Positions 23,663-27,115 of a DNA stretch of 64,000 bases are shown here, piece after piece. Where the stretch lies: NCBI GenBank assembly GCA_019321725.1, contig CM033110.1:22313210-22377209 (forward strand), read 5' to 3'. Origin of the DNA: Paulownia fortunei. Taxonomy: Eukaryota; Streptophyta; Magnoliopsida; Lamiales; Paulowniaceae. Under the pieces are notes generated by a model, which saw only the letters and a program-made list of their open reading frames with translations, ran no database searches and was not told where the DNA came from. Position numbers and translations under genes: made by a program. Position 1 is the stretch's first letter. Every line of letters starts with the position of its first letter.

Positions 23663-26600
23663 CTAACACGATGGAGGTTGAAGTTGTTTTAGCCGTCTGA
23701 CCACCTCCTTCATTGTTGGCCTGGTGGAAAGAGAGTCAACTGTACATACCACAGCCAAGTGTAATACTTCAACCAAATCATCATTTGGGCCTGCATCCCA
23801 CAACCCAGCAGTAAAGAACTCCTTGGCACGGCCTTGCCGCAAGAGCATGCATGCCCAAGCTACGATGTTGAAACCATTTCCATAGGAAGAAAAGGAGGGA
23901 TCCAGTGCTTTCTTGTCAGAAATCAACTCAAGCAACACAACCCCATAGCTATAAACATCAGCCTTGTCAGGGACACGGCAAGTCATTGCATATTCTGGAG
24001 CAATATATCCAAAAGTCCCAGCCACACCAGTCGTGGCATGAGTTTCTGAAGTTCCAAGAAGCCTAGCTAGTCCAAAACCAGAGAGATATGCATTGTAGTC
24101 CTCGTCCAACAATATTTTGCTAGGCTTCAAATCGCGATGGAGAACACGCGGCACACACTGATCATGTAGATAGGCAAGTGCACGTGAAATGTCCAGGGCA
24201 ATCTTGTGCAGTATCCTCCAATCAACAGCTCTAGCGGACCTTTCCTGTATAAACTTTTCCAGGTTGCCACCCGGTAAATAGTTATATATAAGAAACATCT
24301 CTGTTTCACTGGCATGATACCCTATCAGAGTCACAAGGTTCCGATGGCGAAGTCTGCCCAGGGTTTTAATTTCTGCATGAAATTGTTGAACACCTTGGAA
24401 ACGTCCTCCTGCAAACTGTTTTATGGCCACTAGGACACCTGGAGCAATCTCTGCCTTGTATGTTGCCCCAAAACCGCCATAGTCTATGCAGTTGCTTTCA
24501 TTAAAACACCCCGTAGCACACATCACATTCTCAAATGTTAGTGGAACCCCAATGTCAGTAAAGAGAATCACTTCCTTCCTAGCAGTTGTGGCCAGACATG
24601 ATAATAGCAATTCATTTTTCTTGGACGATTTAACTCTGTTCCAAAATGCGTCCCATGGCCAAAGTCGTGATGGCTTATGCATTGTGGCTCCATCTTTTCT
24701 TCCAAATGGAAGCTCAGCATTAACCACTCTGCTATCAGGTTGTTCTTTCTGAGGAGGTATGAGATTCGGCCCATCTGTAGAGACCATTGTTGGCTGCCCT
24801 GTGTTAACTGATTGGTAATTTTCATCGTTACAAGGATGGATGTCACAAGAAACACTTGCTATCTCATTTAACACCAAAACTTTTTTGCTCTCCTGTTGCT
24901 CAACTGCAAACTCAAGTTGTAGCACAACTTGAGACATTGTTGGCCGATTCTTTGGTTCATCATGCAAGCATCTTTCAGCAACCCCCACAAATGTCTTCAG
25001 GCTATCTGGTGAAATTTCCTCTCTCAGGCTTGAAGCTACAATTTGATCAACTTCTCCCTTACTAATCTTATCTCGACCCCACTTGGGCAGAATCCGCTCA
25101 TCCTCTGCAACCCCTGAATCCACTGCTGGTCTCCCACATAATACTTCCAACAACACGACCCCAAAGGCGTATGTGTCACATTTCCTTGTTAGTTTACGCG
25201 TGCAGAAGTAATTTGGGTCTAAGTACCCAAATGTGCCCTTAACATTTGTGCTGACATGGCTCTGTAACTTGCTTCTGTCTTCAGGTTTGGCCAAGCCAAA
25301 ATCAGAAACCTTAGCTATGAAATTTTCATCCAGCAGGATGTTTGAAGCCTTTACATCACGATGTATGACTCCATGGCCCGTGTGAAGATAGTCTATTCCA
25401 CGACCAGCTCCAATGCAAATATTAAGGCGTTGCTTCCAGGTGAGAGAAGAACAGTTATTGCTTTCCCTTGGAAGTTTGTAGAGGTGGTCAGCCAGTGTTC
25501 CACCGGCCATATAGTCATAAACAAGAATCATCTCTCCATGCTCATTGCAGTAACCTATTAGAGAAACTACATTAACATGTCGGAGCTCAGAAAGTGTTTC
25601 AATCTCTGTCAAAAACTCGCGTGCCCCTTGCTTGGAGTTTGATTTTAACCTCTTAACAGCAACAGTCTTTTGCCCTTTATCAATTAGGCCTTTGTAAACT
25701 TTACCAAATCCACCCTTTCCAATTAAAAGTGCATCGCTGAAATTTCTAGTGGCTAATTGGATCTCAGCTAGTGAAAAACAGCGACAGAGTCGTTTAGCCC
25801 TGGCTGATGGCTTGTTTTCCTCCTCAGTACTGCTAGCTTCCCAAATTTCCCGCAACTTATGAACAATGATATTTACCAGAGAAATTATAGTTATTGCAAC
25901 AGTTGCAATTGCATTTCTATGGCCAAGAATCAAGAGTAAAGTTTGGATAGTTTGGGATGGTGAATCCTGAGCTGAAGGCAAGGGATTTGGATTGGCAAGA
26001 CTATTGTCAGGGTTGCTCAACTTAAATATTTCAAACCCTGCAATGAGTCCATGTCCATCTATGAGCTCATCATATGACTGCAGGGAAATCAAGATATCAC
26101 GTTTACCCTCCTTTTTGTGCCCTCTCATTATCACTATGTAGTCCCTATACCAGAGAATGTTATTTTCATTCCTTCCTTTCACTATATCCATATTAGTGTG
26201 AGCAATCATTTCATTAATGAAGACTTTAAACATCACATCACCAGTCCCTGCAATCTTGAGTCCCAGCTCTGAGAAATGAAGCCTGATCAAGTACCTGAAT
26301 CCCACATCCACCGGCAATTTCCACGTGTTATTTTTTATCTTGTTTGCCTTTCGCACTGCCCACATCGGAAACATGTCGTCAAAATCTCCAGTAGATGGAA
26401 CAGAATCCTGTTTAATATTTAGTCGTTGGATTATCTCAAGTGCAGTGCTGTTATCAACATAGACCAGGGAATTCTGACCAACCACTTGGAGTCCAATATC
26501 TCCACTGTGAAAGTAAGAAAGACTGACAGGCACTGAGATGATCTCAATGCCATTTATGAAAGCATATGTATCTAGTGATTGACTACTTTCAGGAGAGAAA

Positions 26601-27115
26601 ATTAGGTTGAATAGTTGATTTTCTTGTATGTTTAAACAGAATTCCTTGGCAAAAGAATTCACACCAAGAGCATCAGCATTAAGCGAAGCGCTGAAGTTAC
26701 TGAGCAAGGTAAAAGGACCGGCTTCAACAGTGAATAAGTCCTTGAACCCTTTAAAACCTTTGTATGGAGCCGGATTAAAGTGAAGGCGGAGAATTTTCTG
26801 ACCTGGGCTCACTTGAAATGCATAGGAGAATTGGGAACGTGAGGCTCGTGCCGTCTTGTGGGGAACTGGATCAGCAGAGATCAACTCACGGATGACAGTA
26901 GAGGTGGTTGATGAGCCCTTTATTTGCAGCAAGGAAGAAACTTTTGGTTGTACATCTCCCATCCATTCCCTGCCATTGCGTGCTGCAGAAGTGCCAATTG
27001 AGCCGCAATTAATAGAAATGTCACCTGTGAAGTGAGTTGGATTATTACTACTGGCTGTGAATGCGATGAGGAAGCAGAGAAATAGCAAAGCAATTGAAAC
27101 TGGATGCGGATTCAT
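23663..27115 (-). CDS. Malectin-like receptor with tandem kinase and pseudokinase
   Basis: A single-exon gene of 1150 aa. Signal peptide at about 1-22. Malectin-like ectodomain at about 28-380 (INCGS, LRLHFNP, DTYAFINGIEIISVP, YLIRLHFSEL). Transmembrane segment at about 390-420. Kinase 1, CrRLK1L-like, at about 455-725: GKGGFG, VAVK near 488, HRDVKASN near 583, DFG near 603, but YLDPNY where the family has YLDPEY. A linker runs to about 840 (PSRLWPWDAFWNRVK). Kinase 2 (about 842-1150) is RPK2-like, with about 22 differences from the local RPK2 gene in about 310 residues. It keeps VAIK and HRD but has DYGGFG for GSGGFG, K1000 where RPK2 has the catalytic-loop Asn, and G1013 where RPK2 has the DFG Asp. 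Kinase 2 is therefore a predicted pseudokinase. The parent family senses cell-wall cues and RALF peptides at the plasma membrane. The role of this fusion is unknown. Confidence 0.88.
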   Translation of the reverse strand: MNPHPVSIALLFLCFLIAFTASSNNPTHFTGDISINCGSIGTSAARNGREWMGDVQPKVSSLLQIKGSSTTSTVIRELISADPVPHKTARASRSQFSYAFQVSPGQKILRLHFNPAPYKGFKGFKDLFTVEAGPFTLLSNFSASLNADALGVNSFAKEFCLNIQENQLFNLIFSPESSQSLDTYAFINGIEIISVPVSLSYFHSGDIGLQVVGQNSLVYVDNSTALEIIQRLNIKQDSVPSTGDFDDMFPMWAVRKANKIKNNTWKLPVDVGFRYLIRLHFSELGLKIAGTGDVMFKVFINEMIAHTNMDIVKGRNENNILWYRDYIVIMRGHKKEGKRDILISLQSYDELIDGHGLIAGFEIFKLSNPDNSLANPNPLPSAQDSPSQTIQTLLLILGHRNAIATVAITIISLVNIIVHKLREIWEASSTEEENKPSARAKRLCRCFSLAEIQLATRNFSDALLIGKGGFGKVYKGLIDKGQKTVAVKRLKSNSKQGAREFLTEIETLSELRHVNVVSLIGYCNEHGEMILVYDYMAGGTLADHLYKLPRESNNCSSLTWKQRLNICIGAGRGIDYLHTGHGVIHRDVKASNILLDENFIAKVSDFGLAKPEDRSKLQSHVSTNVKGTFGYLDPNYFCTRKLTRKCDTYAFGVVLLEVLCGRPAVDSGVAEDERILPKWGRDKISKGEVDQIVASSLREEISPDSLKTFVGVAERCLHDEPKNRPTMSQVVLQLEFAVEQQESKKVLVLNEIASVSCDIHPCNDENYQSVNTGQPTMVSTDGPNLIPPQKEQPDSRVVNAELPFGRKDGATMHKPSRLWPWDAFWNRVKSSKKNELLLSCLATTARKEVILFTDIGVPLTFENVMCATGCFNESNCIDYGGFGATYKAEIAPGVLVAIKQFAGGRFQGVQQFHAEIKTLGRLRHRNLVTLIGYHASETEMFLIYNYLPGGNLEKFIQERSARAVDWRILHKIALDISRALAYLHDQCVPRVLHRDLKPSKILLDEDYNAYLSGFGLARLLGTSETHATTGVAGTFGYIAPEYAMTCRVPDKADVYSYGVVLLELISDKKALDPSFSSYGNGFNIVAWACMLLRQGRAKEFFTAGLWDAGPNDDLVEVLHLAVVCTVDSLSTRPTMKEVVRRLKQLQPPSC

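What the first reader, a model, noticed from the sequence alone, without database searches (positions are those of the whole stretch)
23663..27115. Receptor fusing malectin ectodomain, active-type kinase and RPK2-derived pseudokinase in one frame
Seen directly: one uninterrupted 1150-codon frame with signal peptide, malectin-like domain, transmembrane segment and two full kinase domains from two different receptor families. Known: tandem kinase-pseudokinase proteins confer resistance in cereals (for example WTK1, RPG1), but those are mostly cytoplasmic. Inferred: a plasma-membrane tandem kinase-pseudokinase could act as a sensor, decoy or regulator of RPK2 or CrRLK1L signalling.
Basis: partly seen in the sequence, partly recalled or inferred. 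Interest (0 to 1): 0.92.

Follow-up and report, generated by a model that had tools for sequence, protein, structure and literature searches.

The report
FERONIA-type receptor carrying RPK2 pseudokinase
This plant gene encodes a FERONIA-type receptor, predicted to sit in the cell membrane, with a second kinase copied from the neighbouring RPK2 gene that has lost two catalytic residues and is likely kept as a tethered bait; related receptors carry at least three other kinase types in the same position, so it may open membrane receptors to tests of the decoy idea known from intracellular immune receptors.

Summary
In detail: one uninterrupted 1150-codon frame, on the minus strand, with predicted signal peptide, malectin-like ectodomain, predicted transmembrane helix, FERONIA-type kinase (K1), a 113-residue low-confidence linker, and an RPK2-type kinase (K2). 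K2 was copied from RPK2 about 13 kb away: a 3.2-kb block from RPK2's juxtamembrane codons to the last exon of the neighbouring NINJA/AFP gene recurs at the fusion. K2 has lost the catalytic Asn (N1000K), the DFG Asp (D1013G) and the first loop glycine (G878D). A second copy, 9 kb further, carries two frameshifts. It is no lone oddity. Among the 120 best database hits, receptors of this type carry K2 domains of at least four kinds (RPK2, PTI1, CrRLK1L, and one I call DLSV from memory); 105 of 118 share the linker. On the receptor tree the kind changes at least 16 times, and K2 lacks a catalytic residue far more often (74 of 109) than K1 (4 of 118). A single origin of the Lamiales and Ericales RPK2 captures is rejected (p=0.001). 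I read this as a receptor with an exchangeable kinase slot, most likely an integrated bait. That function is untested. Tandem kinase proteins are a known kind; this is a new variant.

The parts
23663..27115 (-). Fusion gene (FUS), single 1150-codon frame
27041..27115 (-). Predicted signal peptide, about aa 1-25
   Evidence: hydropathy peak aa 5-23; cleavage site not predicted
26021..27013 (-). Malectin-like ectodomain, aa 35-365
   Evidence: PF12819 5.6e-8; FERONIA ectodomain chains
25853..25909 (-). Predicted transmembrane segment, aa 403-421
   Evidence: hydropathy; helix 402-429 in the model
24896..25750 (-). Kinase 1 (K1), CrRLK1L/FERONIA type, aa 456-740; K, HRD-D, N and DFG-D kept
25211..25213 (-). 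K1 APE position, aa 635: Asn where FERONIA has Glu
24587..24886 (-). Linker, aa 744-843, low model confidence, ends in the family motif LWPWDAFWNRVKSSKKNELLLS
23666..24586 (-). RPK2-derived part with kinase 2 (K2), aa 844-1150
   Evidence: (94% to RPK2 kinase)
24482..24484 (-). G878D, first Gly of the ATP loop, invariant in the 38 RPK2s compared
24116..24118 (-). N1000K, catalytic-loop Asn, invariant in the 38 RPK2s compared
24077..24079 (-). D1013G, DFG to GFG, invariant in the 38 RPK2s compared
21606..24587 (-). Copied block at the fusion: RPK2 3' part, downstream DNA and NINJA/AFP last exon
   Evidence: matches 34946-38123 in two pieces (88% over 2.5 kb; 96% over 0.55 kb)
21612..21995 (+). 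Copied NINJA/AFP last exon (Tify domain binding domain), still open
34946..38123 (-). Source block: RPK2 3' part to NINJA/AFP last exon
37199..40693 (-). Donor gene RPK2, intact frame, LRR ectodomain and kinase with HRD, N and DFG
32291..35339 (+). NINJA/AFP gene (EAR, NLS and TDBD in two ORFs), convergent with RPK2
13931..18963 (-). Second fusion copy (COP), 88.7% to FUS, two 1-bp deletions in the frame (near 17147 and 16490), same K2 changes at aa 878, 1000 and 1013

Best explanation
The gene encodes a FERONIA-type receptor, predicted to sit in the plasma membrane, whose tail carries a kinase copied from the neighbouring RPK2 gene that has lost two catalytic residues and likely works as a tethered bait for whatever binds or modifies RPK2. 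Shown by sequence: the block copied from RPK2, the losses in K2, retention of the four main catalytic residues in K1, and repeated exchange of the K2 kind behind K1 in related receptors. Inferred: K2 hangs on a flexible tether; a pathogen or parasite factor, or a host partner, that acts on RPK2's kinase domain would also engage K2; engagement would change K1 activity or a guard protein and start a response. On this reading the slot is refilled with kinases worth monitoring (RPK2, PTI1 and others), as integrated domains are in NLR immune receptors.
For: Copy of the RPK2/NINJA block. K2 lacks at least one of K, HRD-D, N, DFG-D in 74 of 109 second kinases against 4 of 118 first kinases (Fisher 2e-27 without correction for relatedness). 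In the RPK2-derived frame after its first 108 nt, FUS and COP jointly differ from RPK2 at 3 nonsynonymous and 10 synonymous sites, and two of the three are N1000 and D1013, which looks like aimed inactivation in an otherwise conserved domain (unpolarised, and the choice of residues is post hoc). FUS-only changes in K2 are 10 nonsynonymous, 0 synonymous (neutral 2.8:1, p=0.047), against 5:6 in COP (Fisher p=0.012). Loss of DFG-D recurs across K2 kinds: G or N in 5 of 6 RPK2-type and 26 of 54 DLSV-type. The fewest label changes on the ectodomain+K1 tree are 16. The linker (aa 744-843) is matched in 105 of 118 relatives and in every K2 kind. The Paulownia PTI1-type K2 is 72-81% identical to 119 of the 120 listed proteins of 339-541 aa, many named Pto-interacting protein 1 (the other 55%). 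Low-confidence, probably flexible tether. RPK2 is required for beet cyst nematode CLE signalling (PMC9704377, passages).
Against: No ligand, effector, interaction, expression or phenotype evidence. [quoted passage not shown] In PTI1-type K2, 12 of 19 keep the four residues, and Rhododendron's RPK2-type K2 is intact, so inactivity is not a rule. The 10:0 pattern is marginal and would also fit relaxed constraint with few sites. Repeated capture from a neighbouring gene could reflect opportunity more than selection.
Confidence: 0.42

Rival explanations
1. K2 is an internal regulator of K1, as the JH2 pseudokinase is in Janus kinases: it holds K1 off or helps activate it when the ectodomain binds ligand.
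For: Kinase-pseudokinase order; K1 keeps the main catalytic residues but 115 of 118 K1 lack the APE Glu, which could make K1 dependent on a partner. WTK7-TM needs both kinase domains for activity in vitro (PMC11006675, passages).
Against: K2 kind changes at least 16 times on the tree with unlike surfaces, and the linker of about 113 residues has very low model confidence; a fixed allosteric interface would not be expected to survive that.
Confidence: 0.2
2. K2 is a dominant-negative mimic that competes for RPK2's partners and damps RPK2 signalling where the fusion is expressed.
For: 94% identity to the local RPK2 kinase with the two Mg-binding residues lost.
Against: Does not explain the other K2 kinds in the same slot or the changes of FUS K2 at RPK2-invariant sites (9 of 216).
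Confidence: 0.15
3. K2 is a passive by-product: recurrent duplication next to RPK2 appends a kinase that then decays, while the receptor works through K1 alone.
For: RPK2 and tandem receptors share a contig in five species, judged by equal contig lengths; mosaic divergence suggests ongoing exchange; COP already has frameshifts.
Against: K2 frame stays open in this gene and in the deposited Rehmannia and Castilleja proteins; 10 of 13 joint differences of FUS and COP from RPK2 in the later part are synonymous, so at least one side was held by selection (it may be the RPK2 side); RPK2-type arose at least twice.
Confidence: 0.15
4. Assembly or annotation artefact that joins two genes.
For: No transcript data here; relatives with 3-4 kinases may be merged gene models.
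Against: The window frame has no interruption, a second copy shares the same junction, and Rehmannia and Castilleja show the same order.
Confidence: 0.03

Closest known systems
Tandem kinase-pseudokinase proteins (TKPs: WTK1/Yr15, RPG1, WTK7-TM/Pm36)
   Same: Two kinase domains in one protein, often one degenerate, formed by duplication or by fusion of different families (PMC6170490, passages).
   Different: WTK1 has no receptor or membrane part; WTK7-TM has a C-terminal TM and was described in 2024 as the only functionally validated TKP with a membrane-targeting motif (PMC11006675, passages). This one has a FERONIA-type ectodomain and an RPK2 K2. I recall a 2025 survey reporting many TKPs with extracellular domains; it was not held.
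CrRLK1L receptors (FERONIA and relatives)
   Same: Malectin-like ectodomain, TM and K1; best PDB matches are FERONIA.
   Different: Extra linker and second kinase; K1 has Asn at the APE Glu position.
RPK2/TOADSTOOL2 LRR receptor kinases
   Same: K2 is 94% identical to the local RPK2 kinase.
   Different: No LRR ectodomain; catalytic Asn, DFG Asp and a loop Gly lost.
Dual-kinase CrRLK1L-1 genes at the sunflower OrDeb2 locus
   Same: CrRLK1L-type dual kinases with a single active-site and ATP-site signature (PMC8866362, passages).
   Different: Those lack malectin and TM domains, and both halves are homologous to CrRLK1L-type kinases.
NLRs with integrated decoy domains
   Same: Repeated fusion of varied host domains onto a conserved receptor (analogy; search listings and abstract starts only).
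   Different: Not an NLR; predicted membrane receptor; effector binding untested.

Membership tests
Tandem kinase (pseudokinase) proteins | Two kinase domains in one polypeptide | tested here: met
Tandem kinase (pseudokinase) proteins | One domain predicted inactive | tested here: met
   N1000K, D1013G, G878D; by sequence only, no assay
Tandem kinase (pseudokinase) proteins | Role in disease resistance (for the validated members) | not testable with these tools
   no phenotype data
CrRLK1L receptors | Malectin-like ectodomain, TM and CrRLK1L kinase | tested here: met
CrRLK1L receptors | RALF or cell-wall ligand binding | not testable with these tools
   none
RPK2 receptors | LRR ectodomain with RPK2 kinase | tested here: not met
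   kinase only; no LRR family in the fusion and the LRR part was not copied
Integrated-decoy immune receptors | Domain derived from a different host protein, fused to a receptor | tested here: met
Integrated-decoy immune receptors | Slot filled repeatedly with different domains | tested here: met
Integrated-decoy immune receptors | Domain bound or modified by a pathogen effector, triggering immunity | not testable with these tools
   none

The most novel reading that the evidence does not exclude
Asterid plants run a class of FERONIA-type membrane receptors with an exchangeable cytoplasmic kinase slot: kinases of RPK2, PTI1 and other families are repeatedly copied into the same position, disarmed at the metal-binding residues, and used as membrane-tethered baits, a cell-surface counterpart of integrated decoys in NLRs. 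The window catches one such loading event with its DNA scar, the RPK2-NINJA block, still readable.
Probability: 0.38. Interest if true: 0.87.

Novelty: new variant of a known kind. Interest (0 to 1): 0.66.

Why it matters
How tandem kinase proteins sense anything, and why one domain is so often degenerate, is open. Here the donor, the copied block and the recipient lie within 20 kb, the domain is still 94% identical to its parent, and its inactivating changes are countable. If the slot is a bait, the donor kinases (RPK2, PTI1 and others) name host pathways under attack in Lamiales and Ericales, and the idea can be tested by domain swaps.

Tried and rejected
Chance ORF or wrong strand: rejected. 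One ancient RPK2 capture for all: rejected by AU test for Lamiales plus Ericales (p=0.001; 44 rows, Andrographis left out as a long branch, the N and D residues masked). Within Lamiales not resolved: window, Rehmannia and Castilleja K2 group together (88/78, not starred), but FUS+COP with the window's own RPK2 is not rejected either (p=0.21); Rehmannia K2 with Rehmannia RPK2 is rejected (p=0.019). So the near-identity of K2 to the local RPK2 is either a fresh capture with parallel loss of the same residues, or an old capture overwritten by gene conversion. Higher divergence in the first 108 nt (dS 0.165 against 0.053 in the rest) and the mosaic of FUS and COP fit conversion; the different junction (NELLLSCLATTARKE against NELATN[A/V]RN) fits separate capture. 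Whether Actinidia and Rhododendron share one capture is open too (p=0.42).

A leftover of an older K2 in the window was sought by tblastn with DLSV-, PTI1- and CrRLK1L-type K2s; the only matches were the kinases of FUS, COP and RPK2. Rfam (gathering threshold) and tRNA scans gave nothing. No call gave a name for the 'DLSV' kind: PDB matches were mixed; the label rests on recalled motifs. The species was not identified; the relatives point to Lamiales.

Rows dropped: RPK2 comparisons used 37 of the 115 RPK2 relatives listed, picked by me for spread, plus the window's own. Of 120 proteins (the query among them) two (P0099, P0119) had no K1 and were dropped, and 9 of 118 had no second kinase of 180 residues or more; one more was dropped for length, and 9 of its 117 rows were unlabelled. 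Ten second kinases with margins under 25 bits were counted with CrRLK1L (8) or PTI1 (2) and as 'other'. A narrow linker motif (post hoc regex) was found in 36 of 109: RPK2 3 of 6, DLSV 20 of 54, PTI1 8 of 17, CrRLK1L 3 of 22, other 2 of 10. A BLAST match to the linker (40 or more residues, E up to 1e-3, composition correction off) was found in 105 of 118: RPK2 3 of 6, DLSV 52 of 54, PTI1 16 of 17, CrRLK1L 16 of 22, other 9 of 10, no second kinase 9 of 9; identities 29-68% apart from the query itself.
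Full report
What is there. On the minus strand, 27115 to 23663, one uninterrupted frame of 1150 codons encodes a hydrophobic N-terminus, a malectin-like ectodomain, a hydrophobic segment at aa 403-421, and two kinase domains. The ectodomain and K1 match FERONIA best in the PDB; for the whole of K2 BRI1 ranks first. Foldseek ranks FERONIA kinase first for the model. The AlphaFold2 model (42 sequences, mean pLDDT 70.5, pTM 0.38) has both kinases folded and a segment with pLDDT under 50 at 744-856 between them.

Where K2 came from. 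The window holds an RPK2 gene with an intact frame at 37199-40693 on the same strand, and a NINJA/AFP gene (EAR, NLS and Tify-binding domains) converging on it. A self-comparison shows that 34946-38123, from RPK2's juxtamembrane codons through its downstream DNA to the last NINJA exon, recurs at 21606-24587: 88% over 2.5 kb and 96% over 0.55 kb. The copied NINJA exon is still open and still matches the Tify-binding domain. Similarity to RPK2 starts at base 24587, codon 843/844 of the fusion; upstream the sequence is receptor linker. So DNA of RPK2 was copied to the tail of a receptor gene about 13 kb away. A second fusion copy at 13931-18963 has the same junction and two 1-bp deletions in its frame. 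Divergence along the copies is patchy. FUS against COP, in 200-base steps, differs by 1-3% over most of the ectodomain (5-9% at its start), 5.5-12.6% in K1 and 1-4% in linker and K2. FUS against RPK2 differs more in the first 108 nt after the junction (dN 0.136, dS 0.165) than in the rest (0.021, 0.053). This suggests gene conversion.

State of the two kinases. Against 38 RPK2 sequences (37 of the 115 relatives listed, chosen for spread, and the window's own), FUS K2 departs at 9 of 216 invariant columns; these include the first loop glycine (G878D), the catalytic Asn (N1000K) and the DFG Asp (D1013G). The Asn and the Asp are replaced in all five Lamiales sequences compared (FUS, COP, Rehmannia, Castilleja, Andrographis); Actinidia has NFG with the Asn kept, Rhododendron keeps both. 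Counting sites after the first 108 nt, FUS and COP share 3 nonsynonymous and 10 synonymous differences from RPK2, and two of the three are these residues; FUS-only differences over the whole segment are 10:0, COP-only 5:6. Against a neutral 2.8:1 the 10:0 has p=0.047, and FUS against COP p=0.012. K1 keeps the four main residues, but its APE Glu is Asn (aa 635); FERONIA has Glu there. In the family K1 has Glu at that column in only 3 of 118.

A family with a changing second kinase. The best 120 of 6933 database hits (the query among them) are, where named, CrRLK1L-type receptors of Lamiales and Ericales, most with a second kinase. Of 118 with a K1, 109 have a second kinase: 54 of a kind that I call DLSV from recalled motifs, 30 nearest CrRLK1L, 19 nearest PTI1, 6 nearest RPK2 (ten of these are close calls). 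The PTI1 identity was checked by a search: the Paulownia K2 is 72-81% identical to 119 of the 120 listed proteins, of 339-541 aa (median 361), many named Pto-interacting protein 1. The kinds follow a related linker: 105 of 118 proteins match FUS linker aa 744-843, with every kind represented. On a tree of ectodomain plus K1 (117 rows, 108 labelled, quick search with SH-aLRT only) the second-kinase label needs at least 16 changes (4 would be the minimum; shuffled mean 49.5); the RPK2 label needs 5, at least 3 forced by well-supported branches. In the RPK2-kinase tree the Actinidia and Rhododendron K2s fall among Ericales RPK2s, without starred support, and one common origin with the Lamiales K2s is rejected (p=0.001). 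K2 lacks at least one of four catalytic residues in 5 of 6 RPK2-type, 45 of 54 DLSV, 7 of 19 PTI1 and 17 of 30 CrRLK1L, against 4 of 118 K1; alignment gaps count as losses, so these are upper values. By equal contig lengths, RPK2 and tandem receptors share a contig in Buddleja, Penstemon smallii, Perilla, Sesamum indicum and Salvia miltiorrhiza, which would make RPK2 a handy donor. These counts cover the best hits to this query, not all plants, and some long relatives may be merged gene models.

How it most likely works. I favour the bait reading: a membrane receptor whose tethered second kinase stands in for a monitored host kinase, with K1 or a guard as output. For it: exchange of unlike kinases in one position, repeated loss of the same residues, a probably flexible tether, and amino-acid change in the intact copy. 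Against it: no binding, expression or phenotype data, intact second kinases in part of the family, and marginal selection statistics. A fixed internal regulator is less likely because of the exchange of kinds; a dominant-negative RPK2 mimic explains this gene but not its relatives; a passive by-product remains possible.

What is known. Tandem kinase proteins by duplication or fusion were described across plants (92 proteins, 40 by fusion) and a decoy role was proposed (PMC6170490, passages). A 2024 paper says that functionally validated ones lacked membrane-targeting motifs except WTK7-TM (PMC11006675, passages). Sunflower dual-kinase CrRLK1L genes at OrDeb2 lack malectin and TM domains (PMC8866362, passages), and a wheat survey notes single RLKs with two kinase domains (PMC11968617, passages). 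A 2025 survey that I recall as counting many TKPs with extracellular domains was not held. Searches for tandem kinase with Lamiales (0 papers), with CrRLK1L or FERONIA (20 of 294 listed), with malectin (5 listed; 20 of 26 listed) and for two kinase domains with malectin-like (4) listed no title or abstract start on this slot or on an RPK2 capture; I read only the passages named. I file it as a new variant of a known kind.

Noticed in passing
25211-25213 (aa 635) and K1 of relatives: The APE Glu of K1 is replaced (Y, H, N, D, S, T and others) in 115 of 118 relatives while the main catalytic residues stay; the three that keep Glu are Actinidia, Rhododendron and one Penstemon protein. A variable residue at that place in an otherwise conserved kinase is odd.
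   Followed up: partly
relatives P0002, P0007, P0008, P0009, P0011, P0012, P0018, P0021: Some relatives are annotated with three or four kinase domains behind one ectodomain; whether these are real or merged gene models was not tested.
   Followed up: no
13931-18963: The second fusion copy has two 1-bp deletions and otherwise reads through, so it is a young pseudogene or carries sequence errors.
   Followed up: partly
51213-52303: An AT-rich stretch (84% A+T in 51100-52420) matches its own reverse complement at 69% over 1.1 kb, a long degenerate palindrome.
   Followed up: no
56003-58469: Pieces of a serine carboxypeptidase gene on the plus strand.
   Followed up: no
21606-22153: The copied stretch with the NINJA/AFP last exon is 96% identical to its source, more than the rest of the block (88%), which suggests exchange or uneven age along the block.
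   Followed up: partly
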